64,000 bases of DNA from positions 62,001-126,000 of the forward strand of contig NZ_PYGE01000014.1 in assembly GCF_003014555.1 (NCBI RefSeq), read 5' to 3'. Under the pieces are notes generated by a model. The model was not told where the DNA came from. It worked only from the letters and a program-made list of their open reading frames with translations, and did not search any database. Source of the DNA: Haloactinopolyspora alba. GTDB lineage: Bacteria; Actinomycetota; Actinomycetes; Jiangellales; Jiangellaceae. This document shows, in pieces, positions 25,361 through 51,487 of this stretch; position 1 is the first letter of the stretch; each line of letters opens with the position of its first letter. The position numbers and the translations under genes are program-made.

Positions 25361-25389
25361 GTCACGGAAGTCCTTGCGCCGACACCTAC
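25361..25389 (+). promoter_or_regulatory. promoter motif copy 1: GTCACG-N19-CTAC
   Basis: First of seven copies of the block's shared motif, here with G as the last base of the upstream box. It ends 50 bases before the start of the 162-residue membrane protein. GACAC directly precedes CTAC. Confidence 0.65.
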
Positions 25390-25439
25390 GCCGGCAGGGA
25401 CCGTGAACCACGCAAGATCGCCACGGCGAAGAGGTATGC

Positions 25440-25928
25440 ATGGAATACAGGGACGATTTCTCGAATGCCGAGAGCGCCGCCATCGAGGCGTACACCTCGA
25501 TGGCGGTGCGGCACACGATGCTGTTGTTGTTGGGCATCGCCACGATGATGGCCTCCATTCTGGCCATCGTCCTCGCAGCGGTCGGCACGGTGCTCGACCT
25601 GGCCGGCGTGGCCGATCTGCACCCCGCGTTCACGCCGGTGGCCGTGTTCGGTCTCGTCTGCGGGGGTGTCGACTTCATCGCTCGCCGTCGTGACAACGAT
25701 GACATCGCCGGCCTGGCCACCATCGGCGGGCAGGGCGCACTCACGACGGCCGGAGTGGTGGCACTGCTCGGCTGGTTCTCCAGCGGAGCCTGGGTGCTCG
25801 CCGGCGCGCTCGCCGTCGGAGCGACAACCAGCGCGATCCTGTTCAAGTACCCCGAGTGGGAGACCCGGGCGGACATGCTCGAACGGTTCGTCCGCGTGCC
25901 CGACGACGGCGACGACGACCACCGCTGA
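25440..25928 (+). CDS. small membrane protein of unknown function
   Basis: 162 residues with four predicted membrane helices in two hairpins (LLLLGIATMMASILAIVLAAVG, FTPVAVFGLVCGGVDFIA, ALTTAGVVALLGWFS and WVLAGALAVGATTSAILF) and charged ends. I do not recognise a family. It is the first gene of the inserted block and has its own copy of the shared promoter motif. The FtsK-like gene follows after 84 bases, with a second copy of the motif in between, so the two are co-regulated but need not be one transcript. Confidence 0.75.
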   Translation: MEYRDDFSNAESAAIEAYTSMAVRHTMLLLLGIATMMASILAIVLAAVGTVLDLAGVADLHPAFTPVAVFGLVCGGVDFIARRRDNDDIAGLATIGGQGALTTAGVVALLGWFSSGAWVLAGALAVGATTSAILFKYPEWETRADMLERFVRVPDDGDDDHR

Positions 25929-25944
25929 CGCCGGCACTTCACCC

Positions 25945-25973
25945 GTCACAAATCGGCATCCTCGGACACCTTC
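25945..25973 (+). promoter_or_regulatory. promoter motif copy 2: GTCACA-N19-CTTC
   Basis: Located 39 bases before the FtsK/EccC-like ATPase gene, behind the stop of the membrane protein. GACAC precedes CTTC. Confidence 0.7.
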
Positions 25974-26012
25974 GTAGAGGACAGCCACCAGCGTGACGGG
26001 AGGAAGTGCACG

Positions 26013-28781
26013 ATGCGTCTTTCCGCCCTCCGTGCCGGACGGCGTGCGGGCACCGGACCCGACGACCCGCCGGCGCGGCTCGCACACGCCGTCGACACCA
26101 CCGACCACGCCGCCGAGCAGCTGCGTGTCCTGGCGGCTCGGGCCGCCGAACGCGAGCGCCGGCGGTTCGCCGAGCAGCAGCAGACCCTCACCCGCGACGC
26201 CGAACGCCGCCACGCTCGCACCAACGCGCTGCTCGCCGCCGCCACCGACCGGGCCCGTCTCGACATCACCGAACTCCTCGGCCACGGTCCCGGATACGCC
26301 CATCAGCCCTGGGACGCCGCAGTCTGGGAGGAACCCTACGACGAGCCCGTCGAGCCACCCCGCGTCGTTCACGTCGCCACCCTCGGGCTCGCTTCCCCGA
26401 ACTCCATCGTCGAGCTTCCGTTCGTGCTGCCCGCGCTCGGCGCCAACGTCGTCATCACCCACACGCCGGCCGGTCGCGCACCCGCGCACAACCTCGCGCA
26501 AGGGTTCGTCACCCGCGCGCTCGCCGCGGCTCCGCCGGGGTCACTGCGTGCCCATCTGCTCGACGCCGGCGGGCTCGGCCAGAATCTGGGCATTCTCAGC
26601 AGACTGCCGGAGCCACTGGTCAGCGGCGGTGTCCGCGCCACACACGACGAGATCGCCGCGGAGCTCACCACGCTGCGTGAACACGTTCACCGGCTGAACA
26701 GCCGCGTGCTTCTCGGTGACGGCGACTCGCTGGTCTCCCGCTGGCACGACGGCAGCGCCCAGGGCGTTCCGTGCACGCTGGTGTTCGCCGCCGGCCTCGA
26801 CGGGAGTCTGCACACCGACGACGCACAGCAGCTGTGGTCGCTGGCGCGCACCGGAAACCGATGCGGCGTCGCCGTCGTCGCGGTGATCGACACCGGTCGC
26901 GACCTTCCGCAGGGCGTCTCCCTGTCCGATCTCACCTCGACCGCCGAGCACGTGCACGTCGACGACGACGGCGGCGCATCCTGGGAGTCGGCTCCACCGG
27001 CGTTGCATCACCACACACGTGTGCGCTGCCCGAACCCGCCGGGCACCCGGCAGCACCGATTCCTGGCCACCGTCCTCGCGCCCGCCGCGGCTCGCGGCTC
27101 GAACCGGCCGGTCCGGCTGACGGAACTGTTGCAGAGCGAGCCTCCGGAGTCCGCGTCCACCACGACCACCGTCAGCGCACCCGTCGGTCTCGGCGCCGAC
27201 GGCACCCCCATCGAACTCGCCGTCGGCGACGACGAGGACGTGCCGATCGGCGGGCTTCTGGTCGGGCCCTCCGGCTCGGGCAAGACGACGCTGCTGCACG
27301 CGTTCATCCATGCGCTGGTCCACCGCTACCCCCCGGACGAGCTCGAGCTGCACCTGCTGGACATGAAAGCAGGCGTCGAGTTCGCCGAGTACGCCCCGCG
27401 CCCCGGCAGTCCGGCGCTGCCGCACGTGCGCACCGTCGGCATCGAGGCCGACGCGACCTTCGCGCTGGGCGTCCTCCACCACCTGCGTTCGGTCGACGCA
27501 CGGCGCAAGCAGCTGTTCAAGGACGCTTCGGCCGCCTTCGGACAAGAGATCAAGAACATCGCCGAGTACCGGGAGGTCACCGGCGCCCGGTTGCCCCGTG
27601 TCCTGCTCATCGCCGACGAGTTCCAGTTGATGCTGGCCGGTCCCACCGAGGACGAGGCGTGGTCGAGCCTGGACGTCCTCGCCAAACAGGGCCGCAGCCA
27701 GGGCATCCACCTGCTGCTCGCCACCCAGAGCCTCAACTCCGTCGGCCAGGGACGGGGTCTGCAGAAGGCGTCCGTGTTCGACCAGCTCGAGCTGCGTCTG
27801 GGACTGCGCTGCAAGCCGGACGAGCTCAGCACGCTCCTGGACCGCACGGTCCGCGACCGTCTCGACACCGGACGACGTGGCTCCGGCGTCCTGAACCGCA
27901 GCCACGGCGACAGGGACGCCGACCAGCTGTTCCAGGCCGGCCTGCTCGAACCCGACGAGCGCCGCAGCATCCGCGCCGACATCGACGCCCGGCACCTCGC
28001 CGGCCCGCGACCGATCCGGGTCAGCCGTGGTGCCAGCGCGGTCGAGCTCGCCGACGTGGCCGACACGCTGACCGCGGCCACGACACCGTCGATCTACGTG
28101 GGTGCTCCCGTCGGCGTCGACCCGCCGCTGGTCGGGGTTCCGGCCCACCCGGGCGGTGGACGCGGCCTGCTGCTGTCGGACCGGGACGAGAGCCGGGCGG
28201 TGAACTCCGTCGCTGCGATCCTCGCCGGCCTCGCACTGCAGCCGGGCTGCCGCGATGCGCGCTTCGTCGTGCTGGACCTGCTGCCCGAGACGGTCCCGGC
28301 GCGACGCCCGCTCGACCGCGTCGTCGAACTGCTGGGCGAGCGCGTCACCACCGTGACCGAGAAGGACGCCGGCACGCTGCCGGACGTCGCCGCGGATCAC
28401 GGCGGCGCGGCGTTCGTGGCCGTGCTCGGCCTGCAGTACAGCGACCTCGAGGTGCCGTTCTACGCCGCCACCGACGAGCCGCACCCGCTGAGCTGGCTGT
28501 GCTCCGACGCCCCGGCCCGGTCGGTGTTCCCGCTGATCTGGCTCGACACCCCCGACCGGCTGCGATCGCTGGGTCCCGACGGCGAGCGGCTGCAGCTGCG
28601 CGCCGATGCCGGAACGGACGTCGTCGACACGGCGACCTTCCTGGGTCGACGCCCACCGTTCGCGGCGGCCCGCGGCCGGATGTGGTTCCACGACCTCGCC
28701 GGTGACACCGATCCGCGGCTGGTCGACCCGTTGACGGTCGGCACTCACCTGCCCGAACTGCTGGACGGAGCACTCCGGTGA
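26013..28781 (+). CDS. FtsK/SpoIIIE-EccC-like ATPase
   Basis: 922 residues. The first 90 residues are a charged helix likely to form a coiled coil (ARAAERERRRFAEQQQTLTRDAERR). An FtsK-like domain follows with Walker A GPSGSGKTT (about 418-426), HLLDMKAGVEF, Walker B RVLLIADEFQ (about 530) and LATQSL. The last 200 residues resemble a second, degenerate ATPase domain (GRGLLLSDRDESRAVNSVAAIL, no P-loop lysine), as in the EccC ATPases of type VII secretion. No membrane helix was seen, but the next gene, overlapping by 4 bases, encodes one. It could pump DNA or protein; no WXG100 substrate is encoded nearby, so type VII secretion is not proven. Confidence 0.8.
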   Translation: MRLSALRAGRRAGTGPDDPPARLAHAVDTTDHAAEQLRVLAARAAERERRRFAEQQQTLTRDAERRHARTNALLAAATDRARLDITELLGHGPGYAHQPWDAAVWEEPYDEPVEPPRVVHVATLGLASPNSIVELPFVLPALGANVVITHTPAGRAPAHNLAQGFVTRALAAAPPGSLRAHLLDAGGLGQNLGILSRLPEPLVSGGVRATHDEIAAELTTLREHVHRLNSRVLLGDGDSLVSRWHDGSAQGVPCTLVFAAGLDGSLHTDDAQQLWSLARTGNRCGVAVVAVIDTGRDLPQGVSLSDLTSTAEHVHVDDDGGASWESAPPALHHHTRVRCPNPPGTRQHRFLATVLAPAAARGSNRPVRLTELLQSEPPESASTTTTVSAPVGLGADGTPIELAVGDDEDVPIGGLLVGPSGSGKTTLLHAFIHALVHRYPPDELELHLLDMKAGVEFAEYAPRPGSPALPHVRTVGIEADATFALGVLHHLRSVDARRKQLFKDASAAFGQEIKNIAEYREVTGARLPRVLLIADEFQLMLAGPTEDEAWSSLDVLAKQGRSQGIHLLLATQSLNSVGQGRGLQKASVFDQLELRLGLRCKPDELSTLLDRTVRDRLDTGRRGSGVLNRSHGDRDADQLFQAGLLEPDERRSIRADIDARHLAGPRPIRVSRGASAVELADVADTLTAATTPSIYVGAPVGVDPPLVGVPAHPGGGRGLLLSDRDESRAVNSVAAILAGLALQPGCRDARFVVLDLLPETVPARRPLDRVVELLGERVTTVTEKDAGTLPDVAADHGGAAFVAVLGLQYSDLEVPFYAATDEPHPLSWLCSDAPARSVFPLIWLDTPDRLRSLGPDGERLQLRADAGTDVVDTATFLGRRPPFAAARGRMWFHDLAGDTDPRLVDPLTVGTHLPELLDGALR

Positions 28782-29528: not shown

Positions 29529-29557
29529 GTCACAACGGTGCCACGCAGGACACCTAC
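29529..29557 (+). promoter_or_regulatory. promoter motif copy 3: GTCACA-N19-CTAC
   Basis: Located 64 bases before the coiled-coil gene at 29622. GACAC directly precedes CTAC, as in copies 1 and 2. Confidence 0.7.
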
Positions 29558-29621: not shown

Positions 29622-30227
29622 ATGCCGAGCATCAAGGAGTCCGGCGAGATCCTCATCGGGGTTTCGAACGACCTCACCCGCGGCGGCGACGAGACCGCGC
29701 GCGGCCTGACCGAACTGCAACGGCAGGCCGATGCCGCCGTCGAGGCGTTGAACGCGCTGCGCGGACCGGCCGAGGAGGCACGCACCGCCACCGCCACGTT
29801 ACGCGCCAAGGCCGACGAGGCGCGCGCGAAGTTCGACGAGTTGAAACGCTCCGCCGCGACGACCGAGCAGGCCGCGGGTGTGCTGAACACCGCATGCAGC
29901 AACCTCCAGCGTGGCGACACCGACCTGGCGGCCGCGCTCGAGCCACGTATCCGCCCGATCGCCGCACAGGTCACGACGTTCACCGAACAGCTGCGCGAGA
30001 CCGCAACCCGCCTCGAGACGGCTGTCGACGGCCTGATCGAAGGGGCCGATCACATCGGCAAGAACACCGAGCAGCTCAAGGCGGGCGGCGACGAGGTCGG
30101 CAAGGGCGCCGCCCAGGTCAGTGATGGTCTGGGGCAGGCCCGGTCGCGGCTCGGTCAGGTGATCCCGAGCGCGGCGAAGGCCGTGGGCGACCGCGGCCGC
30201 GAGGCCGTCCACGTCGCGCGGCGCTGA
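29622..30227 (+). CDS. long-helix coiled-coil protein of unknown function
   Basis: 201 residues, almost entirely helical and built of heptad-like runs (EETARGLTELQRQADAAVEAL-type, ATLRAKADEARAKFDELKRSA, VTTFTEQLRETATRLETAVDGL). It lacks membrane segments and signal peptide. ATG 29622 was chosen because GGAAGGG lies 10 bases before it. The pattern resembles methyl-accepting or phasin-like coiled coils but no family is recognised. It lies between the ATPase pair and another small helical protein, under its own promoter motif, so it may be a structural or secreted partner of the FtsK-like machine. Confidence 0.7.
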   Translation: MPSIKESGEILIGVSNDLTRGGDETARGLTELQRQADAAVEALNALRGPAEEARTATATLRAKADEARAKFDELKRSAATTEQAAGVLNTACSNLQRGDTDLAAALEPRIRPIAAQVTTFTEQLRETATRLETAVDGLIEGADHIGKNTEQLKAGGDEVGKGAAQVSDGLGQARSRLGQVIPSAAKAVGDRGREAVHVARR

Positions 30228-31075: not shown

Positions 31076-32938
31076 TCAGTACACCCCGTCACTCAGGTGG
31101 CGGATACGGACGGTGCGGGTGCGCGACACCTCGGCGGTGCCGGCCCCGTCGGAGCCTCGCCACTGGATCCGCAGGCGAGTGCCGTCGTTCTCGACCGCGT
31201 CCACCTGTTCCACGACCACCCAGCCGGTGTCGTCGTCGATGCGCGCCAGGTTGCCGGGTTCGAGCTGGGAGACCATGACGATCTCGGACCACCCGCCGGC
31301 GTCGCGTCCCGCGCCGGCAGTGTCGTCGGACTGCTCCGTCCGGCGGGCACGGCCCCAGTCGACCAGCCCGCTCGCCGCACTCGCGTACCCTTCGGTGAGC
31401 TCGCCTGACAGCGTGGCTCGCCACGTCGCGGCAGGGCTGTCGCTGCGCGCACGCGGGCGCTGCACGTGCAGGACGGGGTGCGTGACGACATGTGGGCGGA
31501 ACGCCTCGATCAGCCGGAGATCCTGCTCGTCACCGATGCGTCGCGCCTCGCGCGGATCCGGCGTCCAGTAGCACTGCACCGTGGCGGCCGTGCCGTCACC
31601 GACACGAACCACGCCCCGGCCGGGAACCGGCTCGGCCGACTCGTCCGCGTCGGCGCCACGCCACAGAACGGAACTCGCGGGTGCGTCCAACCGCCCCAGC
31701 GCGACGACCGTGCCGAGGTCGTCCCGGTGCTGCTCGCGTAGCAGCGGATCGTCCGCGCGTTGCACGCTCAGCACGACGACGACGTTGACCTGACCCCCGT
31801 GGCGCAGCAACTGGGTGACACGGTCGGACGCGAGGGCGGCACCCGCAGCGCTCTGGTCGGCGCGGGCGGCGGCCTCGGCGACCGCGGTGGCGAACTCGCG
31901 GAAATGGTGGACCATGACGACCAGCGGCTCCAGGTCCGCCGGGCTGGTGCCGGACTCGACCAGCTCCACCCGGCTCTCCATCTCACGCCAGGCGTGCTCG
32001 AGGACGACGATCTGATCGTCCAGTGTCGACGCCACGATCTGCACGTTCGGCCAGTCGCGCAGCCCGTGCAGGTCGACCCGCCGATGGTCGATGATCCACA
32101 CCGGCCACCCCCGGACCGCGGCTTCGAGGGCGACCCCGGTCAGCAGCACCCGCTTGCCCGAACCCGACCGGCCGAGCACCAGCAGGCTGCCGTGCGAACC
32201 TCCGGGATCCCACGTCACCTGTGCGCCCGAGGCGTTCACGCCCAACGCGACGGGGCGCCCCGGACGCTGGTCGCCCGGTGGTGGCGGGCGATGGATCTTC
32301 TCGGTCGTACGGCGTGCCGGTTCCGGATCGGGCGTCGCCTCCGGCTCCGGCTGTGTACTCAGCGGCCCCGGTGAGCGGCTCGGATCACGGAGCGTGAGCC
32401 GTCCGTCACGGGCGTTGTGCCTGGCCACCACGTACTGCTCACCCAGGTGGGCGTGCACCGCACGGGCGACGGCCTCGGCCCAGCCGGGAGCGGCGTCGTC
32501 GACGACCGTGGGATACCGGACGTTGAGCAGATGCGGGATGCCGACCCACCCGCCCTTCCACCGTCGCGCGTCCACCTCGAGATAGGTCGTGTCCGGTACA
32601 CCGATGGGCTCGGTCATGGAGCCCGCGAGCCCAGCCGTCGCCTGGTCGCGTCGCCGGCGTCGCGCGGCCAGCACGCCCAGCACCGCCGCGCAGCCCAGAA
32701 CCGGTGCCGCCAGGACCAGCCCCGGGCCAGGCTGATCGAGCACCACGAGGATGGTCCAGACCGCGACAGCCAGGACGGCGACCGCCGCGGCTGCAGCGGT
32801 GAGCGCGGCGGCGCTGAACCCGGGCCGGGTCGCTGCCACCGGCCGGGTGGCCTCGAAACGGGCGGCGTGCTCGTCGGCGGCGCCCGCCGTCCCCGCGGAC
32901 TCACCCGGTCGTGCGCGCGCCGGTTCCTGGGCCGTCAC
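31076..32938 (-). CDS. membrane-anchored FtsK-like ATPase (coupling-protein-like)
   Basis: 620 residues from a GTG with GGGAGG upstream. Two adjacent membrane helices near the start (AAAAAVAVLAVAVWTILVVL, VLAAPVLGCAAVLGVLA) precede the motor domain. Walker A is GRSGSGKRV: the usual Thr/Ser after the lysine is Arg, which is unusual. A Walker B-like strand (PLVVMVHHFREFA) lacks the canonical acidic pair. It ends in an SH3/Tudor-like small barrel (LARIDDDTGWVVVEQVDAV). The layout suits a TraB/T4CP-like coupling ATPase that passes substrate to the transfer channel, but the altered motifs make ATP hydrolysis doubtful. It has its own promoter motif, divergent from the wall-hydrolase gene. Confidence 0.72.
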   Translation of the reverse strand: MTAQEPARARPGESAGTAGAADEHAARFEATRPVAATRPGFSAAALTAAAAAVAVLAVAVWTILVVLDQPGPGLVLAAPVLGCAAVLGVLAARRRRRDQATAGLAGSMTEPIGVPDTTYLEVDARRWKGGWVGIPHLLNVRYPTVVDDAAPGWAEAVARAVHAHLGEQYVVARHNARDGRLTLRDPSRSPGPLSTQPEPEATPDPEPARRTTEKIHRPPPPGDQRPGRPVALGVNASGAQVTWDPGGSHGSLLVLGRSGSGKRVLLTGVALEAAVRGWPVWIIDHRRVDLHGLRDWPNVQIVASTLDDQIVVLEHAWREMESRVELVESGTSPADLEPLVVMVHHFREFATAVAEAAARADQSAAGAALASDRVTQLLRHGGQVNVVVVLSVQRADDPLLREQHRDDLGTVVALGRLDAPASSVLWRGADADESAEPVPGRGVVRVGDGTAATVQCYWTPDPREARRIGDEQDLRLIEAFRPHVVTHPVLHVQRPRARSDSPAATWRATLSGELTEGYASAASGLVDWGRARRTEQSDDTAGAGRDAGGWSEIVMVSQLEPGNLARIDDDTGWVVVEQVDAVENDGTRLRIQWRGSDGAGTAEVSRTRTVRIRHLSDGVY

Positions 32939-32971
32939 CGCACCCTCCCTCGGATCGATCTCTCGGTTACT

Positions 32972-33000
32972 GAAGGTCGGTTCCGGCCCCCGGCTGTGAC
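32972..33000 (-). promoter_or_regulatory. promoter motif copy 4: GTCACA-N19-CTTC
   Basis: On the minus strand, 33 bases before the second FtsK-like gene. Its GTCACA box lies in the left arm of a 13-base perfect inverted repeat shared with the divergent copy 5. Confidence 0.7.
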
Positions 33001-33045
33001 ACCGGACCACGGACGAGTCGCCGCCCCCTCGATGTCACAGCCGGG
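32989..33045. promoter_or_regulatory. 13-bp perfect inverted repeat spanning two divergent promoters
   Basis: CCCGGCTGTGACA (32989-33001) and its exact complement (33033-33045) face each other across 31 bases. Each arm contains the GTCACA box of one divergent promoter motif plus identical flanking bases. The symmetry suggests either co-evolved promoters or one dimeric regulator acting on both. Confidence 0.7.
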
Positions 33046-33062
33046 ACGTTTCGACCACCTAC
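33034..33062 (+). promoter_or_regulatory. promoter motif copy 5: GTCACA-N19-CTAC
   Basis: Located 62 bases before the SLT-CHAP gene. CCAC precedes CTAC. Confidence 0.7.
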
Positions 33063-33124: not shown

Positions 33125-34504
33125 ATGTGGAAGAAGGTCGCCGTCGGTGGCGTGCTCTTCTTCCTGGTCGCCCCGATGCTCATGCTGGCCGCGGCGTTCG
33201 GTCTCGTGTCTGCGGCCGCGTGCAAGTCGATGGACGACATCCCGTTCGTCGAATGCGAGTTCCTGCTCGAGGGTGGGAACGGCGACCAGTGCCAAGGCGA
33301 GCTGCCGACGGGCCTGTCGGCCAACGTGCCGAAGCCCTGGCGTCCGCTGATCGGCGATGCCGCCGAGGCCTTCGACGTCAACCCGAACTTCCTCGCAGCC
33401 ATCTTCCTCACCGAGAACGGCAACGTGTGGCGTGCGCCGGACACGGACTGGCCCACCTCGTCGGCCGGCGCGGGCGGGCCCATGCAGTTCGTTCCCGGCA
33501 CCTGGCGCGACTACGGCATCGACGGCGGTGGCGACGGCACCGCCGACCGCAACGACCCGGCCGACGCGCTGCACTCCGCCGCCAGCATGTTCTCGGTGTC
33601 GCCTGCGAAGGGCGCGCCGATCTACGGATCCACCACGGTCGGCATGCCCGTGGGATCGATCGGCAAACCATGGCTCCCCGGCACGCTCCTGCACGCGTCC
33701 GCGATGTACAACGCCGGGCCGGGAACCATCGCCAACAACACCCGTCCCGGCGACACGCTCGACGGGCCGGAGTGGGGCCGTGCGTGGGAGGTCCGAAGGT
33801 ACCTGCACAACGTCCATGCACTCCTGCACAGCGACCTGACCAAGAGCGGCGTCACCCCCCAGAACGGTTACACCGGACAGGCGGGTGGCCGGTACGACCA
33901 CAACGGCGACTTCATCGCCGCATGGGCCGATCCGCACGGCCTCGGCGTCGGTGACGGAGGTAGCCGTGACGGTCCCGCACCCGATCCCTGCGCACCACCG
34001 ACCGGTGACCTCGGCTCCGTCGTGCAGATCGCGCGCAAGGAGTTCGAACGTGGCCCGCGTGAGCAGACGCACTGCGGCCGCATCTGCGACGTCTACATCG
34101 ACGACGGGCACGAGGATTGGTGCGCGGACTTCGTCAGCTGGGTGTTCAAGGCGGCGGGCGTCCCGTTCAAGCCGACCCCCGGCACGAAGATGTACTTCTG
34201 GCGCCACGACTGGCAGATTCCCGCCGTCATGGGCATGGAGGAATGGTTCCGCCGTGGCGCTCACGGCAGTCAGTTCTTCACTCCGGGCCAGCAGGATCCA
34301 CAACCCGGCGACGTCGCCATCTACGCCGGCCACGTCAACATCGTCGTCGCCGTCAACCCGGAACAGCAGACGCTGGTCACGATCGGCGGCAACGAGTCAG
34401 ACACCATCCAGCAGTCCACCGGGACCTTCGCCACCGGCACCAGCTCCGGCCTGGTCGGGTACGGGCGTGTCGCCGGTGGGGCCGCGCAGGAGCCCGGCGA
34501 ATGA
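33125..34504 (+). CDS. two-domain cell-wall hydrolase: lytic transglycosylase (SLT) plus CHAP
   Basis: 459 residues. An uncleaved or signal-type N-terminal helix (VAVGGVLFFLVAPMLMLAAAFGLVSA) exports it. Residues about 65-240 are an SLT-like domain with catalytic Glu in FLTENGNVW, GPMQFVPGTWRDYG and the DPADALHSAA and ASAMYNAGPG motifs. A linker leads to a CHAP/NlpC-type peptidase: Cys in EDWCADFVSWVF, His in GDVAIYAGHVNIV, Asn in IGGNESD. ATG 33125 follows AGGTGG. Such hydrolases (VirB1/CwlT type) open the wall for type IV secretion; its pairing with a VirB8-like gene supports this. Stop overlaps the next start. Confidence 0.88.
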   Translation: MWKKVAVGGVLFFLVAPMLMLAAAFGLVSAAACKSMDDIPFVECEFLLEGGNGDQCQGELPTGLSANVPKPWRPLIGDAAEAFDVNPNFLAAIFLTENGNVWRAPDTDWPTSSAGAGGPMQFVPGTWRDYGIDGGGDGTADRNDPADALHSAASMFSVSPAKGAPIYGSTTVGMPVGSIGKPWLPGTLLHASAMYNAGPGTIANNTRPGDTLDGPEWGRAWEVRRYLHNVHALLHSDLTKSGVTPQNGYTGQAGGRYDHNGDFIAAWADPHGLGVGDGGSRDGPAPDPCAPPTGDLGSVVQIARKEFERGPREQTHCGRICDVYIDDGHEDWCADFVSWVFKAAGVPFKPTPGTKMYFWRHDWQIPAVMGMEEWFRRGAHGSQFFTPGQQDPQPGDVAIYAGHVNIVVAVNPEQQTLVTIGGNESDTIQQSTGTFATGTSSGLVGYGRVAGGAAQEPGE

Positions 34505-43617: not shown

Positions 43618-43656
43618 GGCTGGTTCTCCTTGCTGGGCGGGCTGTACGGGTGACAT

Positions 43657-44775
43657 CTAGGGCGACCGGGTGGCCGTGGAGTCGCCGCCGGTCTCCGGTG
43701 ACCGGCTCGGTTCCGACGGCGGGTCCGTCGGCTCACTCGTGGCCGTCCCGCCCGTGGTCGTCGGCGTCGGTGTCGGTGTCGGCGTGGGGACGGGAACGGG
43801 TTCGGCCAGGACCGGCGCCGGGCTCATCTCGGCGATCTCCCACCGGTTCTCACGGGCACGCAGGACCAGCGCGTACTGCGCGCCGACGGCCTGCTCGTGT
43901 GCGCCGTACACCAGGACGTCGGCCCGGATCTCGAGCCGGGCGCCGTCGTCCGGGCGCGCGCTCGGCGCCTCGTCGCCGGTCACGTCGATGGCCTGCACCT
44001 CGATGGCGCTGTATCGCACCTGACCGAGCGGGCGGAACGACGTGCCGGGGCTGCTGTAGGCCTCCAGCTCGGACTGGTCGCCGGTGACGAGCATCGCCTC
44101 GAGGAACTTCGCGACCCACGTGAACGCCGGATGGTCACGCTGAAGCTCCATTTCGTAGCCGTCGGCGAGCGGCTCGACGGTCGCCGGAGCGGGAACCGGG
44201 GCCGGCAGCGCCTGCGCGACCAGCTCGCCCGACACGTACAGCACCGGCAGCTGGAAGTACTGCCGACCGGACCGGACCTTCGCCTTGCTTCCGGGGGGAC
44301 GGCCCTGCGTCGTGTCCACGCCGACGACCACCGACCACAGACCGGTCTCGTCCTTCACCACCTCGGCGACGGCGGGCCGCTCCGCGGTCCAGGGGAACTC
44401 GGGCCGTTCGGTCGCGAGGTCGCCGAAGTACCGACGCAGGGAGTCGGCGCGCTGTTCCGGTGTCTCCAGCCAGGCGACGACGGCGCTCTCGGCGAACTCG
44501 CTCACCGCGGCCGCCTCGCCGAGCCGTTCTCCCGGACCGTTGCTCTCGACGACCGGTGCCAGGGCGGGCGGTGCCAGCAGCTGTAGCCCGAGCGCTGTCG
44601 GACCGGCGACAAGTGCCGCCCACAGCAGCCCGACGACCGCCTTCGTCGTCAGGTTCGACCCGGCGGTCCAGGCGTGCTGTTCCGACGGCGCGGCGTCGGT
44701 GGCCGACGCGTCACGCGCGTCGTCCTCGCCGCCCGAGCCGTCCTTCGGCGGGCCGAAACCCCAGTTGATCTTCAT
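43657..44775 (-). CDS. TcpC/VirB8-like conjugation protein
   Basis: 372 residues from ATG 44775, which overlaps the preceding gene by 4 bases. One membrane helix (about 45-65, TTKAVVGLLWAALVAGPTALGL) and two extracytoplasmic NTF2-like domains (VSEFAESAVVAWLETPEQRADSL..., HPAFTWVAKFLEAMLVTGDQSELEAY) as in TcpC, followed by a P/T-rich tail ending outside. TcpC/VirB8 forms the scaffold ring of Gram-positive transfer channels. Confidence 0.82.
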   Translation of the reverse strand: MKINWGFGPPKDGSGGEDDARDASATDAAPSEQHAWTAGSNLTTKAVVGLLWAALVAGPTALGLQLLAPPALAPVVESNGPGERLGEAAAVSEFAESAVVAWLETPEQRADSLRRYFGDLATERPEFPWTAERPAVAEVVKDETGLWSVVVGVDTTQGRPPGSKAKVRSGRQYFQLPVLYVSGELVAQALPAPVPAPATVEPLADGYEMELQRDHPAFTWVAKFLEAMLVTGDQSELEAYSSPGTSFRPLGQVRYSAIEVQAIDVTGDEAPSARPDDGARLEIRADVLVYGAHEQAVGAQYALVLRARENRWEIAEMSPAPVLAEPVPVPTPTPTPTPTTTGGTATSEPTDPPSEPSRSPETGGDSTATRSP

Positions 44776-45038
44776 GGTGACGGTTCCTCGCGTCCGGAGG
44801 TCTCCGCGGGCGTCCATGCGTCGTCCTGCCCGGACAGGTGCTCGAGGCGATCGAGCGCCCGTTGTGCCCGTTCGGCATTGGCGCCGACGGCGTCCTGCAG
44901 ACGCTCGGCGGCGTCACGATCGAACGGATCGGCCACCAGGTGGGCGATCTCTCGGTCGATCGCGCGCCGGGCGGCCAGCACCGTCGCGGCGTCCACCAGG
45001 GACTGCCGGTTGCTGAAGGGCTCTGGCATCTCGGGCAC
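44772..45038 (-). CDS. small charged protein, first gene of the type IV secretion-like operon
   Basis: 88 residues, helical and without membrane segment (RQSLVDAATVLAARRAIDREIAHLVADPFDR..., ERAQRALDRLEHLSG). No family recognised. It lies 28 bases behind promoter motif copy 6 and overlaps the TcpC-like gene by 4 bases, so the ten-gene operon down to the J-domain gene starts here. Confidence 0.7.
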   Translation of the reverse strand: MPEMPEPFSNRQSLVDAATVLAARRAIDREIAHLVADPFDRDAAERLQDAVGANAERAQRALDRLEHLSGQDDAWTPAETSGREEPSP

Positions 45039-45066: not shown

Positions 45067-45095
45067 GTAGGTACGCGCAGGCATCGTCCTGTGAC
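45067..45095 (-). promoter_or_regulatory. promoter motif copy 6: GTCACA-N19-CTAC
   Basis: On the minus strand, 28 bases before the first gene of the type IV secretion-like operon. Confidence 0.7.
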
Positions 45096-45277
45096 GGCGT
45101 CGTCGCATCACGGTTCGCGGCCACAGGCGGGCCCAGCACCGGAGTCAGTACCGGAGTCGGCACCGGGCAAGCGTCCCGGCGGGCCCGACGACCCTGCGGG
45201 CAAGAGGCTCGGCAAGGGCGCGGCAGCAGCCTGATCGGTGTCCGGTCCCATCCACCATCCGCTCTTTGGGGGCCCGC

Positions 45278-46108
45278 ATGCCGACCATCGCCGACCTCGA
45301 GGTCACCGACACCAGAGATGCCGCCACCGCGCCCGGAGCCGCGGCACCCGGTGTCACGCGGGCTCGCAGGCGCACCGACGGCAGTCTGGCCGGCCGGCTC
45401 AACGTCGAGTGGGCGCGGCTGCGCCACGACGACACCGCCGCCGCGGCCGTCGCCTCGTGGGCGCGTGTGCATCCCGCTCTGGCCGGCTGCGCGTCACCCG
45501 GAGACGTGGAACACCGCGTCGTCTCGGCACCCGAACGGGCCGACGACGTCCTGCTCGCGCTGGTCCGGCTGGCTCACGACGGCGACGACCTCGCCGGGCG
45601 GACCGTGCTGCAGCTGATGCTGGGCAAGGCGCTGCGGATCGCCGGGACCCGAGCCGGGCAGGACCCGCGACCGGACCTCGAGCACGCGGCCATCAGCGCG
45701 CTGTGGACGACGATCGCCACCTACCCGGTCGAGCGGCGCCCGGGCCGGGTCGCGGCCAACATCGCCATGGAGACGCTCCGGCTGGTGTCCGCCGAGCTGG
45801 CCCACCGCAGGTGCGAGACCCCGGCGAGCCCGGACGACGTCGACCTGACCGCAGCGCCGGCACGTCCGCGCGCGGACGTGGAGCTGATGAACCTGCTCGT
45901 CTGGGCGGTCGAGCGGGGAACGGTCACCGCGGCGGACGCCACCCTCGTGCTCGACATCTACAGTCCGGCACCAGGGGAGTCCGGCGGCACGGCAGCGGCC
46001 GAGCGGCACGGCCTGAGCTGGCCGGCGGCGCGCCAGCGCGCGAGCCGGGCGGCCCGCCGTATCGCCGACGCGGTCCACGCCGACGGGTCGTGGCCCTGGG
46101 ACCGGTAG
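45278..46108 (+). CDS. sigma-70-like regulator
   Basis: 276 residues from ATG 45278 (an in-frame TTG lies 4 codons earlier). The middle (EHAAISALWTTIATYPVERRPGRVAANIAMETLRLV, about residues 125-160) resembles sigma region 2, and the end (ADATLVLDIYSPAPGESGG, AAAERHGLSWPAARQRASRAARRIADAV) resembles the region 4 helix-turn-helix. The similarity is distant; a degenerate sigma factor or sigma-derived regulator is the best description. It is divergent from the type IV operon and upstream of the pilus operon, which makes it the candidate reader of the shared promoter motif. No copy of the motif lies in front of it. Confidence 0.62.
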   Translation: MPTIADLEVTDTRDAATAPGAAAPGVTRARRRTDGSLAGRLNVEWARLRHDDTAAAAVASWARVHPALAGCASPGDVEHRVVSAPERADDVLLALVRLAHDGDDLAGRTVLQLMLGKALRIAGTRAGQDPRPDLEHAAISALWTTIATYPVERRPGRVAANIAMETLRLVSAELAHRRCETPASPDDVDLTAAPARPRADVELMNLLVWAVERGTVTAADATLVLDIYSPAPGESGGTAAAERHGLSWPAARQRASRAARRIADAVHADGSWPWDR

Positions 46109-46480: not shown

Positions 46481-47185
46481 ATGAGTTCGCCCCCCGCCCA
46501 TCAGCCGACCGCGGAGCAGCAGCCTGAGGACCCCGACCTCGAGGCGAGCGAGTCCACGCTCAAGCCCGCTGTCGCGGCCCCGCCGAAACAACGCCGCCGC
46601 CCCGCCCTGATCGGGCTCGGCGTCGCCCTCGTGGCGCTCGGCGGTCTCGGCGCCGCGTGGCTGGCCACCAGCGTCAGCGACAGCGTCTCCGTCATCGCGA
46701 TGAGTACGGACGTTCCGCGCGGCCAGGTCATCGAACGCGCCGACCTCACCACGGCGGACATCAACACCGACCCCAGCCTCGAGCCGGTACGCGCGGGCCG
46801 TATCGACGAGATCGTCGGTCAGCACGCCACCAGCGACCTGTCCAGCGGCAGCCTGCTCACTCTCGACGCCGTCGCCGACACCGTGCGACCGGGCGACGGC
46901 GAGGCGCTGGTCGGGGTGGCCGTCACCGCCGCGCAACTGCCGGCCGAGCCACTCCGCCCCGGCGACTCCGTCCGCATCGTGGACACGCCGAACCCGCAGG
47001 ACGACCCGCCGTCGGACACGCCGAACTCGATCGAGGCCGTCGTGGTGCGCTCCACCGTCGACCAGGAGTCGGGACAGCGCGTCGTCGACGTCGTCGTTCC
47101 CGAGGGTGACGCCGCCTCGCTCGCGGCCCGGGTGGCCACGGGACGGATCACGATCGTCCTGATGTCGCGGACGGAGGGCGAGTGA
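46481..47185 (+). CDS. SAF-domain pilus assembly protein (CpaB/RcpC-like)
   Basis: 234 residues. Disordered N terminus, one membrane helix (about 43-63, PALIGLGVALVALGGLGAAWLA), then a SAF domain (VIAMSTDVPRGQVIERADLTTADI...) that in CpaB binds peptidoglycan and guides the Flp pilus through the envelope. It is the first clear gene of the Tad locus; its stop overlaps the TadZ-like start. Confidence 0.82.
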   Translation: MSSPPAHQPTAEQQPEDPDLEASESTLKPAVAAPPKQRRRPALIGLGVALVALGGLGAAWLATSVSDSVSVIAMSTDVPRGQVIERADLTTADINTDPSLEPVRAGRIDEIVGQHATSDLSSGSLLTLDAVADTVRPGDGEALVGVAVTAAQLPAEPLRPGDSVRIVDTPNPQDDPPSDTPNSIEAVVVRSTVDQESGQRVVDVVVPEGDAASLAARVATGRITIVLMSRTEGE

Positions 47186-47997
47186 TGGCCGTCGTCGTAC
47201 TGACTTCCGCACGTGGGGCCCCCGGCGTCACCACCAGTGCGCTGGCCATGGCGATGCTGTGGCCGCGGCCGGTGGTGCTGGTCGAGGCCGACGTCGCCGG
47301 CAGCAGCAGCATCCTCGCCGGCTATCTCCGCGGGTCGGTACCGCCGGACCGTGGTCTGGTCAGCCTCGCCGTCGCGCACCGCCGCGGCGTGCTGGCCGAG
47401 CAGTTCTACGAGCAGACGGTCAACCTCATCGAGGACCGGGTACGGCTGGTGCCCGGCCTGGTCAACGCCCAGCAGGCGGCCAGTATGGACCGGCTGTGGT
47501 CCCCGCTGAGCATGGTGCTGTCCGGCCTCGAGCGCGCCGGCACCGACGTCATCGTCGACGCCGGGCGGCTCGGCATGGTGCACGGACCCCAGCCGCTGAT
47601 CCGTTCCGCCGACGCGGTTCTGCTGGTCACCCGCACCACCCTGCCCGCGGTCAGTTCCGCCCGGGCGCGGGTCGAGTCGTTGCGCACCGAACTCGTCGAC
47701 TTCGGCCAGGGCGACGACACGCTCGCGGTGCTGCTGGTCGGCGAGGGGCAGCCGTACCGTTCCCGCGAGATCCACTCCGCGCTGCGGACCCCGGTGCTCG
47801 CCGCCATGACGTGGGACCAGGCGGCGGCGGAGTCGCTGAGCCACGGCGCGGCGTACGGACGCCGATTCGCCGCCGCTCCGCTGTTCCGCGGCACGCGGGT
47901 CGCCATCGGCGCCGTCCACGAACTGATCGATCGGCACCGTACCCGGCTGGCGCCGGCCTCCGGCGAGCAGCTGATGCAGGAGCCGACCTATGGCTGA
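47185..47997 (+). CDS. TadZ/CpaE-like protein of the MinD fold with altered P loop
   Basis: 270 residues. The MinD/ParA fold is recognisable (VVVLTSARGAPGVTTSALAMA, VVLVEADVAGSSSIL, DVIVDAGRLG, ADAVLLVTRTTLPAV), but the loop is RGAPGVTTS: both lysines of the deviant Walker A (KGGxGKT) are missing. TadZ proteins locate the pilus base at the pole and several have lost ATP hydrolysis. The ATG at 47185 shares one base with the upstream stop; it overlaps cpaF by 8 bases. Confidence 0.8.
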   Translation: MAVVVLTSARGAPGVTTSALAMAMLWPRPVVLVEADVAGSSSILAGYLRGSVPPDRGLVSLAVAHRRGVLAEQFYEQTVNLIEDRVRLVPGLVNAQQAASMDRLWSPLSMVLSGLERAGTDVIVDAGRLGMVHGPQPLIRSADAVLLVTRTTLPAVSSARARVESLRTELVDFGQGDDTLAVLLVGEGQPYRSREIHSALRTPVLAAMTWDQAAAESLSHGAAYGRRFAAAPLFRGTRVAIGAVHELIDRHRTRLAPASGEQLMQEPTYG

Positions 47998-49600
47998 CCC
48001 GGACAACGCCGCCTCGAATCTCGAGAACCTGCCGCTGTTCGCCGACAGCGGCTCACCGGACATCGGCGAGTGGGGCGACGGCCGCACGTTCGGCTCGGAG
48101 CGCGACGGTGCGACGGACCTGCGGCGCTCGTTGCAGGCCAGGCTCGCGTCGGCCGGCTCCAACGGGCACGGCCAGCCGACGGCGACCGGCCCGAACGGGC
48201 GGCACGCGTCCGGGCACGCCGACGCCGACGACGAGCCGGGCCTGCGCGCCCGCGACATCACCGGCCACGGCGACATCGGGCGGGGCGAGAACATCGACTG
48301 GGCCCTCGTCCGCGCCTACCGCGAACAGGCCGCCGACCAGCTGGCGCACGCCCTGCGCGACCGCGAGGGCCTGGACGAGGCCGGCCGGCGCGAACTGGGC
48401 CGCAGCATCGTCGTCGAGCTGCTCGCCGACCACGCCGAGCACGCCCTCACCAAGGGCCTGCCGATCATCACCCAGGACGAGCAGATCCAGCTCGCCGAGG
48501 CGATCATGGCGGCGCTGTTCGGCCTGGGCCGGCTGCAGCCGCTGGTGGACGACCCCGACATCGAGAACATCGAGATCAACGGCCACGACAACGTCCACCT
48601 CATCTACGACGACGGCCGCATCGAGGAGGGCCCTCCGGTCGCGGACAGCGACGAGGAGCTCATCGAGACGCTGTCGTTCCTCGCCTCGCGCACCAGCTCG
48701 AACGAACGGCCCTTCTCGCCGACCAACCCGCGGCTGCACCTGCGGCTGCGCGACGGCTCCCGGCTGGCGGCCACCGCTTGGATCACCCCGCGGCCGGTCG
48801 CGGTCATCCGCAAGCACCGGCTGACCGACATCGGCATCCGCGAGCTGGTCGATCTCGACATGCTCAGCCCGGCGGCCGCGGCGTTCCTCGCCGCCGCCGT
48901 GCGGGCACGCAAGAGCATCGTCGTCTCCGGCGCCCAGGGGGCGGGCAAGACGACGCTGGTCCGCGCCCTGACCAACGAGCTCGACCCGCTGGAGCGCATC
49001 GGGACCATCGAGACGGAGTACGAGCTCCATCTGCACGACATGCCGGACCGGCACCGCCGCATCGTCGCGTGGGAGTCGCGGCCCGGCAGCGGTGAGCGCG
49101 GCCCGGACGGGCGCGCGGTCGGCGAGATCACGCTGGACGACCTCGTCTACGACTCGCTGCGGATGAACCTGTCCCGCCTGATCGTCGGTGAGGTCCGCGG
49201 CCGCGAGGTGCTGCCGATGTTCAAGGCGATGCAGTCCGGCGCGGGGTCGCTGTCGACCACGCACGCGCACTCCGCCCGTGCGGCCATCGAGCGCATCGTC
49301 ACCTGCGCCATGGAAGCCGGTCAGCACGTCACCGAGTCGTTCGCCTACCGGCAGATCGCCGAGCACATCGACCTCGTGGTCCAGATCGAGCTGCGCGACG
49401 AGAGCAACGCCGGCGGTAAGCGCTGGCGCTACCTGACCGAGATCGTCGCGGTCGAGCCCGGTGAGCACGGCATGCCGGCGGTCACCGACGTGTTCCGCCC
49501 GGGCCCCGCCGGGACCGCGGTTCCCGGCACGCCGCCGATCTGGCTGGCCGACCTCGAGCGGGTCGGATTCGATCCACGGCTGCTCGACCAGGAGGGCTGA
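47990..49600 (+). CDS. tadA: Tad/Flp pilus assembly ATPase (CpaF/TadA)
   Basis: 536 residues. About 95 disordered residues, then the VirB11/CpaF N-terminal domain (LFGLGRLQPLVDDPDIENIEINGHD) and the motor: Walker A SGAQGAGKTTLVRAL (about 313), Asp box, RLIVGEVRGREVLPMFKAMQSG and the His box STTHAHSA. It powers extension and retraction of Flp pili from the cytoplasm. It is 1 base from tadB and overlaps the TadZ-like gene, so the whole assembly unit is one transcript. Confidence 0.95.
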   Translation: MADPDNAASNLENLPLFADSGSPDIGEWGDGRTFGSERDGATDLRRSLQARLASAGSNGHGQPTATGPNGRHASGHADADDEPGLRARDITGHGDIGRGENIDWALVRAYREQAADQLAHALRDREGLDEAGRRELGRSIVVELLADHAEHALTKGLPIITQDEQIQLAEAIMAALFGLGRLQPLVDDPDIENIEINGHDNVHLIYDDGRIEEGPPVADSDEELIETLSFLASRTSSNERPFSPTNPRLHLRLRDGSRLAATAWITPRPVAVIRKHRLTDIGIRELVDLDMLSPAAAAFLAAAVRARKSIVVSGAQGAGKTTLVRALTNELDPLERIGTIETEYELHLHDMPDRHRRIVAWESRPGSGERGPDGRAVGEITLDDLVYDSLRMNLSRLIVGEVRGREVLPMFKAMQSGAGSLSTTHAHSARAAIERIVTCAMEAGQHVTESFAYRQIAEHIDLVVQIELRDESNAGGKRWRYLTEIVAVEPGEHGMPAVTDVFRPGPAGTAVPGTPPIWLADLERVGFDPRLLDQEG

Positions 49601-49601
49601 G

Positions 49602-50516
49602 GTGTCCGCGTTCACGGCAGCACTGTCGGCCATGCTGATCCTCGGCGGGATCCTGCTCGTGGCCGTCGGGCTGGTGCCGCGGTCGGCGCTCGCCCGGCCG
49701 ACCACCCGTACTCAGCGGGTCAAGGCGAGGTTCGTCTCGGCGACCGGCGGGCGCGGTCAGGCGGCGCGGCGGACCCGGAAGCTGCTCGGCGTGGGACTCG
49801 CCGTCGGCATGCTCGGGTGGCTGCTGACCGGGTGGCTGATCCTCGTGCTGCTCGCTCCGGTGGCACTGATCGGTCTTCCGGTCCTGCTCACGCCACCGTC
49901 GTCGTCCACGTCGGTGGCGAAGCTCGAAGCCATGGAGGAATGGACCCGGTCGCTGGCCGGCGTGCTCACCGTCGGTGTCGGCATCGAGCAGGCGATCATG
50001 GCGACGATGAAGTCGACGCCGGAGGCGTTGCGGCCCGAGGTCACGACGCTGGCGGCGCGGCTGCGCGCACGGTGGCCGACAGTGGCAGCGCTGCGCGCCT
50101 TCGCCGACGACCTGGACGACGCCACCGGTGACCTGATCGCGTCGTCGCTGATCCTCGGCGCCACCCGGCGCGGTTCCGGTCTCGCCGCCGTGCTCGAAGG
50201 CCTGGCCAGCACGGTCGCGCAGGACGTCCAAGTCCGGCGCAACATCGAGGCCGACCGTTCGAAGCCGCGCACGACGGCGCGGATGGTCACCATCGTCACC
50301 CTGGTCGCCCTGGGGTTCATGGCGTTCAACAGCGGATACATCGAGCCGTACGGCACACCCGTCGGCCAGATCGTGCTGATCATCCTGCTCAGCTGCTACG
50401 TGCTGTGCCTGCTGTGGATGCGCCAGATCACGCGGCCGCAGCCGCTCCCCCGGATCATGGGCTGGAACCTGCGCGCCTCGAACCGCGGCAGCCCGGCCCG
50501 AAGCGAGGCATCATGA
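49602..50516 (+). CDS. tadB: Tad pilus inner-membrane protein TadB
   Basis: 304 residues from GTG with GGAGGG upstream. Two N-terminal helices (LSAMLILGGILLVAVGLVP, WLLTGWLILVLLAPVALIGLPVLL), a GspF-type cytoplasmic domain (KLEAMEEWTRSLAGVLTVGVGIEQAI, TRRGSGLAAVLEGLASTVAQDVQVRRNIEADRS) and two C-terminal helices. It forms the platform on which the ATPase acts. The stop overlaps tadC (ATGA). Confidence 0.9.
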   Translation: MSAFTAALSAMLILGGILLVAVGLVPRSALARPTTRTQRVKARFVSATGGRGQAARRTRKLLGVGLAVGMLGWLLTGWLILVLLAPVALIGLPVLLTPPSSSTSVAKLEAMEEWTRSLAGVLTVGVGIEQAIMATMKSTPEALRPEVTTLAARLRARWPTVAALRAFADDLDDATGDLIASSLILGATRRGSGLAAVLEGLASTVAQDVQVRRNIEADRSKPRTTARMVTIVTLVALGFMAFNSGYIEPYGTPVGQIVLIILLSCYVLCLLWMRQITRPQPLPRIMGWNLRASNRGSPARSEAS

Positions 50517-51415
50517 TCTGGGAGCTGGGCATTCTCGCCGGAGCCCTGGCCGGGCTCGGCCTCACGCTGGTCATCCGCGAGCTGGCCCCGTCACATCCGC
50601 ATCTGCGGGCCACCCTGGGCCGCCTGCACAACGACGCCGGTCCCGCGCCGTCCGTGCAGGTGCCGACGTCGCGACAGACGTCACTGTTCCAGGACCGGCT
50701 CGGGCGGATGCTCGAGCAGCGGCTGCCCACGCTGGTCGGCTTCCGGCTCCCCCGCCGCGAGCTCGACCTGCTGCGCATACCGACCTACCGGTACTTCGGC
50801 GAGAAGGCGCTGTGGGCGCTGCTCGGGCTGTGCTTCCCGGCGATCCTCACGATGACGCTGATGATCATGGGGGTGACGCCGCCGTTCAGCATCCCCGCGT
50901 TCGTCGGGCTGATCCTCGCGGTCGTCATGTGGTTCCTCCCGGACATCGAGACCCGGCAGAAGGCGAACCGGGCACGTGAGGACTTCACCCGCGCACTGGG
51001 CGCCTACATCGACCTGGTGGCGCTGGAACGCGCGGGTGGGGCCGGATCGACACAGGCGATGGAGAACGCCGCCGAGGTCGGCGACTCCTGGGTCTTCCAG
51101 CGGCTTCGTGAGGAGCTGGCCAGGGCCCGGTGGTCCGGAACCACGCCGTGGGAGGGGCTGCACACGCTGTCCCGCCAGCTCGGCCTCAACGAGCTCGACG
51201 ATCTGGCCGACATCATGCGGCTGTCCGGCGAGGAGGGCGCCACCGTGTACGAGAGCCTGCGCGCTCGCGCCGAGGGCCTACGTAACGCTACGTTGTCGGC
51301 CGAGCATGCTCGAGCGAACGCCGACAGCGAGCGGATGGTCATGCCGGTGGCCCTGCTCGGCGTCGTCTTCATGGCCATCCTCGCAGCTCCGACGGTGATG
51401 CGTATGCTCGAATGA
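50513..51415 (+). CDS. tadC: Tad pilus inner-membrane protein TadC
   Basis: 300 residues. First helix (LGILAGALAGLGLTLVI), a cytoplasmic region, paired helices (ALWALLGLCFPAILTMTLMIMG, IPAFVGLILAVVMWFLPDI) and the second GspF-type domain (FTRALGAYIDLVALERAGGAGSTQAMENAA, LRARAEGLRNATLSAEHARANADSERM) ending in a helix. The start overlaps tadB. A separate pilin unit follows after 118 bases. Confidence 0.9.
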   Translation: MIWELGILAGALAGLGLTLVIRELAPSHPHLRATLGRLHNDAGPAPSVQVPTSRQTSLFQDRLGRMLEQRLPTLVGFRLPRRELDLLRIPTYRYFGEKALWALLGLCFPAILTMTLMIMGVTPPFSIPAFVGLILAVVMWFLPDIETRQKANRAREDFTRALGAYIDLVALERAGGAGSTQAMENAAEVGDSWVFQRLREELARARWSGTTPWEGLHTLSRQLGLNELDDLADIMRLSGEEGATVYESLRARAEGLRNATLSAEHARANADSERMVMPVALLGVVFMAILAAPTVMRMLE

Positions 51416-51458
51416 CAGCCGACCCAGCCGCCCGCACCGAGAATTCACCACCTCCGTC

Positions 51459-51487
51459 GTCACAGAGGCCGGCCGCCAGGGGCCTAC
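51459..51487 (+). promoter_or_regulatory. promoter motif copy 7: GTCACA-N19-CTAC
   Basis: Located 46 bases before the Flp pilin gene. Nearby TGTGACG (51492-51498) mirrors the upstream box. Confidence 0.7.

What the first reader, a model, noticed from the sequence alone, without database searches (positions are those of the whole stretch)
25361..51487. Seven copies of a fixed-spacing promoter motif, GTCACA-N19-CTAC, unite the inserted block
Seen directly: at 25361, 25945, 29529, 33034 and 51459 on the plus strand and 33000 and 45095 on the minus strand, a GTCACA (once GTCACG) box is followed by exactly 19 bases and then CTAC or CTTC. All seven lie 28-64 bases before the first gene of a unit: small membrane protein, FtsK-like ATPase, coiled-coil protein, second FtsK-like ATPase, wall hydrolase, type IV operon and Flp pilin. 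Other GTCACA boxes I noticed outside the block (6722, 23739, 24486) lack the partner at this distance. The pattern implies one dedicated regulator for transfer-like, FtsK-like and pilus genes. The spacing does not match the sigma consensus sequences I know.
Basis: partly seen in the sequence, partly recalled or inferred. Interest (0 to 1): 0.88.

Follow-up and report, generated by a model that had tools for sequence, protein, structure and literature searches.

The report
Promoter code for a toxin-secretion regulon
The repeated DNA signature is a real, conserved promoter shared by a type IV-secretion-like machine, a pilus and a scattered set of toxin-like proteins in soil actinomycetes, most likely read by a hidden sigma factor encoded in the middle of the block.

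Summary
In detail: seven GTCAC[AG]-N19-CT[AT]C sites at the stated places, 0.47 expected by chance. It refines to GTCAC[AG]-N18-C[C/T]T[A/T]C. Every orthologous promoter read in Jiangella and a sister genome keeps both boxes and the exact spacing, while spacer and flanks diverge.

Of 13 exact GTCACA-N18-CCTWC sites in the 5.5-Mb genome, 11 precede either the block's genes or scattered genes for toxin-like proteins. Those proteins share an N-terminal helical hairpin; C-terminal domains in the family (own genome or relatives) include a nuclease, an ADP-ribosyltransferase and a RelA/SpoT-like domain. Several start 6 nt after the second box, as leaderless transcripts from a -10 element would.

The likely reader is the unannotated 276-aa protein at 45278-46108: no Pfam match, but a predicted sigma-70 fold and a colinear profile match to ECF sigmas. 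Homologues recur beside Tad-pilus or VirB4 loci in several families. A paralogue at a second Tad locus goes with a changed -10 (CCCA[C/T]) and the same -35.

Shown: promoter, conservation, regulon. Inferred: sigma function, and that machine and toxins form one secretion system. Nothing is experimentally tested.

The parts
25361..25389 (+). promoter P1, GTCACG-N18-CCTAC, before the small membrane protein
   Evidence: GTCACG also in the orthologous promoter of G001 and G016
25440..25928 (+). small membrane protein (162 aa), no family match
   Evidence: 82% identical in G001
25945..25973 (+). promoter P2, GTCACA-N18-CCTTC, before the first FtsK/EccC-like ATPase
26013..28781 (+). FtsK/SpoIIIE ATPase, EccC-like (922 aa)
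   Evidence: FtsK_SpoIIIE 1.5e-20; EccCa 1.2e-26, far below its curated cut-off
29529..29557 (+). promoter P3, GTCACA-N18-CCTAC, before the coiled-coil protein
   Evidence: conserved in 9 genomes
29622..30227 (+). coiled-coil protein (201 aa)
   Evidence: 64% identical to the Jiangella orthologue; frame corrected
32972..33000 (-). promoter P4, GTCACA-N18-CCTTC, before the second FtsK-like ATPase
   Evidence: conserved in 9 genomes
31076..32950 (-). second FtsK-like ATPase (624 aa)
   Evidence: weak FtsK_SpoIIIE 6e-4, EccCb 1.1e-6
33034..33062 (+). promoter P5, GTCACA-N18-CCTAC, before the wall hydrolase
   Evidence: conserved in 9 genomes
33152..34504 (+). transglycosylase plus CHAP wall hydrolase
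   Evidence: SLT_2 4.7e-10, CHAP 9e-10
45067..45095 (-). promoter P6, GTCACA-N18-CCTAC, before the T4SS-like operon
   Evidence: conserved in 8 of the genomes read and in three named Jiangella
37604..45038 (-). T4SS-like operon: 88-aa protein, TcpC-like, membrane protein, PrgI-like, VirB4, TrbL-like membrane protein
   Evidence: VirB4 AAA_10 1.9e-42, TcpC 5e-8; VirB4 85-89% identical in the related genera; PrgI and TrbL names are by position and appearance
45278..46108 (+). sigma-like protein (276 aa), proposed reader of the promoter
   Evidence: predicted sigma fold; hhalign to ECF sigmas E 4.9e-6
45165..45216 (+). GGCAA repeats before the sigma-like gene, possible operator
   Evidence: spacing shared with homologues
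46481..51415 (+). Tad machinery: SAF/CpaB-like, CpaE-like, CpaF, TadB, TadC
   Evidence: SAF 1.6e-8, T2SSE 4.2e-26, T2SSF 1.7e-10; CpaE name by position and synteny
51459..51487 (+). promoter P7, GTCACA-N18-CCTAC, before the Flp pilin
51534..53036 (+). Flp pilin, TadE-like and TadG-like genes
   Evidence: Flp_Fap 0.004 (weak), TadE 1.7e-6
53046..56489 (+). LysM protein with a BTAD/SARP-like C-terminus
   Evidence: LysM 1.6e-10; BTAD reading by eye and own knowledge; homologues at other Tad loci

Best explanation
GTCAC[AG]-N18-C[CT]T[AT]C is a bipartite promoter, with GTCACA as -35 and CCTWC as -10. It is read by a divergent sigma-70-family factor encoded at 45278-46108, at the head of the Tad genes and divergent from the T4SS-like operon. 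RNA polymerase carrying this factor would transcribe together the T4SS-like operon, the EccC/FtsK-like ATPases, a wall hydrolase, the Flp pilin operon and scattered toxin-like effector genes, so that making the factor switches on machine and cargo at once. Shown: the motif, its conservation, its gene set, the toxin-like domain architecture, and the association of the protein family with Tad/VirB4 loci. Inferred: sigma activity, direct recognition of this motif, export of the effectors by this machine, and a role in competition with other bacteria.
For: Chance and spacing tests. 47 orthologous sites in nine genomes with exact spacing: boxes 1.00/0.97 identical, spacer 0.60, flanks 0.46-0.51. 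11 of 13 exact genome sites are in the block or before effector genes. Homologues of the effector N-terminus found without the motif carry it in 5 of 21 cases against 6 of 1500 random segments. ATG or GTG starts exactly 6 nt after CCTWC in several effectors. Predicted sigma fold and profile match to ECF sigmas, E 4.9e-6. Homologues lie beside Tad or VirB4 loci in several families, with GTCACA-N17/N18/N19-CCTWC in two of those families. A second Tad locus with a paralogue has GTCAC[AG]-N18-CCCA[CT] instead, and a third has CCAAC.
Against: No experiment. The sigma-like protein has no Pfam match of its own, Foldseek's best E is only 1.3e-3, and Z near 10 can arise by chance for helical folds. Four distant loci with a homologue show no clear motif. 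No clean copy of the motif was found near the 60%-identical orphan paralogues. Many effector homologues have no site. The -10 change with the paralogue rests on few independent events. The LysM-BTAD protein travels with most of the same loci.
Confidence: 0.72

Rival explanations
1. The motif is a real promoter, but GTCACA is bound by a separate activator and the housekeeping sigma reads CCTWC. The candidate activator is the LysM protein with a BTAD/SARP-like end (53046-56489) encoded with the Tad genes.
For: The LysM-BTAD protein is encoded at the first and second Tad loci and in other families, and its own promoter at the second locus carries the motif.
Against: The VirB4-only loci G028 and G030 carry the motif and the sigma-like gene, with no LysM-BTAD match in the DNA read. 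A single GTCACA box is not the direct-repeat site usual for SARPs (own knowledge). CCTWC is unlike the actinobacterial housekeeping -10 TAnnnT (own knowledge). A genome-wide search for LysM-BTAD in those genomes could not be run.
Confidence: 0.15
2. An ECF sigma encoded elsewhere, such as an ECF41 type, reads the motif.
For: ECF41 uses -35 TGTCACA. Sigma proteins that look like ECF41 (by sequence appearance and own knowledge) exist in this genome.
Against: The ECF41 -10 is CGTC with a 16 +/- 1 spacer and its targets are the neighbouring COE genes. Here the -10 is CCTWC at N18, and the base before GTCACA is T in only 23 of 47 sites. The -10 varies with the local sigma-like paralogue.
Confidence: 0.07
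3. The sites are WhiA (GACAC) targets of developmental genes.
For: GACAC overlaps the second box in three of the seven promoters; WhiA controls division genes in Streptomyces.
Against: The bases before CCTWC vary (CAC, GAC, TAC, TGC, GGC) and box 1 with the exact spacing is invariant, which WhiA does not explain.
Confidence: 0.03
4. The regulon serves DNA transfer or uptake rather than toxin export; the co-regulated toxin-like proteins are accessory. The promoter reading is unchanged.
For: VirB4, TcpC and FtsK-like ATPases and a Tad pilus are typical of DNA transfer or uptake machinery (own knowledge).
Against: No relaxase was recognised among the block proteins scanned. VirB4 is 85-89% identical across two genera and found in every one of their genomes searched, as for a resident chromosomal locus. 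Nuclease, ART and RelA/SpoT-like domains recur in the regulon.
Confidence: 0.2

Closest known systems
ECF41 sigma factors and their promoter TGTCACA-N16-CGTC (PMC3426412)
   Same: The -35 box GTCACA; bipartite sigma-type promoter
   Different: -10 is CCTWC at N18; no SnoaL-type C-terminal extension found; targets are secretion and effector genes rather than COE genes
LXG/WXG100 toxins of type VII secretion (PMC3482391, PMC5555719)
   Same: N-terminal helical hairpin, variable C-terminal toxin domains, a weak YezG-like immunity candidate downstream, an EccC-like motor
   Different: The N-terminal family has no Pfam match; genes are scattered and tied to the machine by a shared promoter; VirB4 and Tad genes are in the same regulon
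Bacteria-killing type IV secretion systems (Xanthomonas X-T4SS; PMC6536674)
   Same: VirB4-based machine with toxin-like candidates
   Different: Gram-positive-type components, Tad pilus, EccC-like ATPases; the targeting signal would be N-terminal; shared dedicated promoter
Exported alarmone synthetases of actinomycetes (PMC12691689)
   Same: RelA/SpoT-like domain on an exported-type protein in actinobacteria
   Different: Here one member of a wider effector family linked by a promoter

Membership tests
sigma-70 family | sigma-2 fold | tested here: met
   predicted model: 2.0 A over 93 residues to RpoS, 1.8 A over 90 to SigA
sigma-70 family | sigma-4 helix-turn-helix in order after sigma-2 | tested here: met
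   colinear hhalign match, E 4.9e-6, probability 86
sigma-70 family | recognised by curated family models | tested here: not met
   no Pfam match in the window protein; 2 of 27 homologues weakly hit Sigma70_r4
sigma-70 family | binds core polymerase and starts transcription at the motif | not testable with these tools
   needs in vitro transcription
ECF41 | -10 CGTC at 16 +/- 1 | tested here: not met
   C[CT]T[AT]C at N18 in 47 of 47 sites
ECF41 | SnoaL-like C-terminal extension | tested here: not met
   protein ends shortly after sigma-4; no such Pfam match
polymorphic toxin | shared N-terminus with variable C-terminal toxin domains | tested here: met
   Endonuclea_NS_2, ART, RelA_SpoT-like C-termini on one N-terminal family
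polymorphic toxin | cognate immunity gene downstream | tested here: inconclusive
   weak YezG-like hit, below cut-off, after one nuclease effector
conjugative T4SS | relaxase in the locus | tested here: inconclusive
   none found among the block proteins scanned, but not every ORF was scanned
T4SS | VirB4 ATPase with VirB8/TcpC-like partner | tested here: met
   AAA_10 1.9e-42, TcpC 5e-8
T7SS | EccC/EssC ATPase and WXG100 substrates | tested here: inconclusive
   EccCa 93.7 bits against a cut-off of 509; effector N-terminus a helical hairpin, ESX proteins only among weak matches, E about 1-3

The most novel reading that the evidence does not exclude
A previously undescribed actinobacterial toxin-delivery system that combines T4SS-like (VirB4/TcpC), EccC-like and Tad-pilus parts, with cargo genes scattered over the chromosome, held together by its own family of cryptic sigma factors. 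Paralogous sigma factors with diverged -10 elements would run parallel, insulated copies.
Probability: 0.5. Interest if true: 0.92.

Novelty: new variant of a known kind. Interest (0 to 1): 0.82.

Why it matters
Whether Gram-positive T4SSs deliver effector proteins is named as a long-standing open question (PMC12857230). A promoter shared by a VirB4 operon and toxin-like proteins gives named cargo candidates and one gene whose deletion should silence machine and cargo together. The promoter is also a cheap tool to list more cargo in many genomes, including proteins without any domain match. And a sigma-like family without a Pfam match suggests that some regulators are missing from current sigma-factor catalogues.

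Tried and rejected
Reading the coiled-coil gene at 29603 was a wrong frame; the conserved frame is 29622-30227. The C5:264842 site, first scored as inside a gene, lies directly before an effector. The motif was sought around the 60%-identical orphan paralogues (G000 C15 and C5; G007) without a clean copy. Distant Tad/VirB4 loci G057, G251, G216 and G317 gave no clear motif. Direct PDB sequence search with the sigma-like profile gave nothing. Paper searches for this promoter, or for T4SS with polymorphic toxins in Actinobacteria, found no precedent in the held library, which is not a full literature search. A genome-wide test for LysM-BTAD in the VirB4-only genomes could not be run. WhiA as reader was considered and rejected. 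Hits near an Ada-like gene (L203-L205, L211) and an ADP-ribosylglycohydrolase-like gene (L218) were left unassigned.

Full report
OBSERVATION. The seven sites exist as described; chance expectation is 0.47, and 19 is the only enriched spacing between 10 and 30. Alignment of orthologous promoters shows the element to be GTCAC[AG]-N18-C[CT]T[AT]C. With GTCACA-N17-V-CCTWC the genome holds 13 hits against 3 for the control (Poisson P 1.6e-5).

CONSERVATION. The closest named relatives found are Jiangella. The same element precedes the T4SS-like operon and the Flp pilin in three named Jiangella genomes. In nine genomes every block promoter lying in the DNA read is kept, with exactly 18 bases between the boxes: 47 sites. 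The six-base box 1 is GTCACA in 44 of 47 and GTCACG in the other three, which are one promoter, that of the small membrane protein, in three genomes. Mean pairwise identity within orthologous groups is 1.00 for box 1, 0.97 for box 2, 0.60 for the spacer and 0.46-0.51 for the flanks. Box identity is partly by selection, since sites were found by the pattern; but no orthologous gene whose upstream DNA was read lacked a site. In Jiangella the hydrolase and second FtsK genes are no longer divergent, yet each keeps its own promoter.

REGULON OUTSIDE THE BLOCK. Of the 13 exact sites in the own genome, six are in the block (the seventh block site has GTCACG). Five lie before genes at C1:90253, C1:467607 (minus), C5:264512 (minus), C6:77044 and C18:61071, whose products share an N-terminal domain of about 100 residues. 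Only C1:510068 and C26:60610 are unexplained. Relatives show the same pattern. C-terminal domains found include Endonuclea_NS_2 (6e-25 in the own genome; 2.9e-14 in G001), NAD:arginine ADP-ribosyltransferase (4.7e-11, G020) and RelA_SpoT (2e-5, just below cut-off, G013). Several other members have no recognised C-terminal domain. The ORF after the own-genome nuclease has a weak YezG-like immunity hit (0.0027, below cut-off). A profile of the N-terminus found further homologues without using the motif. Excluding close homologues of the seeds, 5 of 21 carry an exact site against 6 of 1500 random segments; two more carry the CCCAT class. Most of these further homologues have no site, so not every family member belongs to the regulon, or some lie inside operons. 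Several starts (ATG or GTG) lie exactly 6 nt downstream of CCTWC, where a leaderless transcript from a -10 element would begin. The N-terminal domain is predicted as a long helical hairpin (pLDDT 87); Foldseek lists ESX/WXG100 proteins among weak, non-significant matches, so this likeness is only suggestive.

ORF 45278-46108 (276 aa) has no Pfam match and no meaningful NCBIfam match. AlphaFold2 on 27 homologues gives pLDDT 85. The best-ranked PDB matches are sigma factors. VIA-align gives Z about 10 to whole sigma factors, with high rmsd because the two domains are placed differently, and single-domain matches of 2.0 A over 93 residues (RpoS) and 1.8 A over 90 residues (SigA) for sigma-2. The tool warns that helical folds can reach such Z by chance, so the profile comparison matters: hhalign to 14 sigma factors from the same genome aligns sigma-2 and sigma-4 in order, E 4.9e-6, probability 86. 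That E-value is for a single comparison.

GENOMIC COMPANY. The gene precedes the Tad genes and diverges from the VirB4 operon. A class-wide profile search found relatives in 38 of 394 genomes. Homologues lie beside Tad genes only (G006, G216), beside VirB4-type genes only (G028, G030, G057, G317), or between both (G251) in the DNA read. In family f10 (G030) the operon promoter is GTCACA-N17-CCTTC and an FtsK-like gene has N18; in f8 (G028) a GTCACA-N19-CCTAC site precedes the operon. At a second Tad locus a roughly 40%-identical paralogue lies beside a second LysM gene, whose promoter is GTCAC[AG]-N18-CCCA[CT] in 14 loci; a second promoter of the same class lies beyond the pilus genes in most of them. 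A third Tad locus in one genome has GTCACA-N18-CCAAC before its Flp gene. So the -35 stays while the -10 changes with the paralogue. This is what a sigma reader predicts, but few independent events are involved.

UPSTREAM CONTROL. Sigma-like genes carry repeats of GGCAA with preferred spacings (32/33 and 12 bp) roughly 130 to 55 bases before the start; density 14 per kb against 1.3 background. The pattern GGCAA-N7-GGCAA occurs 29 times in the own genome (control 11), among them upstream of three of its sigma-like paralogues. This suggests a second layer that switches on the sigma factor. The LysM protein with a BTAD/SARP-like end is a candidate; that is untested.

MECHANISM. Most likely a signal, possibly at the cell wall, raises the sigma-like protein, which directs polymerase to GTCACA/CCTWC promoters and turns on machine and cargo together. 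Shown by sequence: promoter-like element, conservation, regulon, architecture. Inferred: sigma activity, the activating signal, export through this machine, and an antibacterial role.

KNOWN AND NEW. The -35 equals that of ECF41 (PMC3426412), but the -10, spacing, protein architecture and targets differ. Gram-positive T4SS effector translocation is described as an open question (PMC12857230). Exported RelA-SpoT-type enzymes with LXG domains or near T4SS genes are known in actinomycetes (PMC12691689). A dedicated sigma factor for a secretion system is a known kind of arrangement (own knowledge, for example HrpL of type III systems), hence 'new variant of a known kind'.

Noticed in passing
45165-45216, and upstream of homologues (e.g. 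L031, L041, L048, L049): Repeats of GGCAA with preferred 32/33-bp and 12-bp spacing before the sigma-like genes of all paralogue groups and of other families: a likely operator of a second regulatory layer.
   Followed up: partly
22376-22534 +: A Sigma70_r4_2 match (3.4e-15) in the ORF at 21917-22639, an ordinary ECF sigma factor a little upstream of the thioredoxin-like gene at 24503-24829, next to the block.
   Followed up: no
L064 (G000:C15), L065 (G000:C5): Two orphan paralogues, about 60% identical to the sigma-like protein, away from any Tad or VirB4 gene; their targets are unknown.
   Followed up: partly
L196:8701-9369 and equivalents in L184, L187, L189-L192, L194: The second CCCA[CT] promoter beyond the second Tad locus precedes a membrane protein with a TcpC-like look but no Pfam match.
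   Followed up: partly
L203, L204, L205, L211: A conserved GTCACA-N18-CCTAC site upstream of an Ada-like gene in several Jiangella genomes, not obviously part of the secretion regulon.
   Followed up: no
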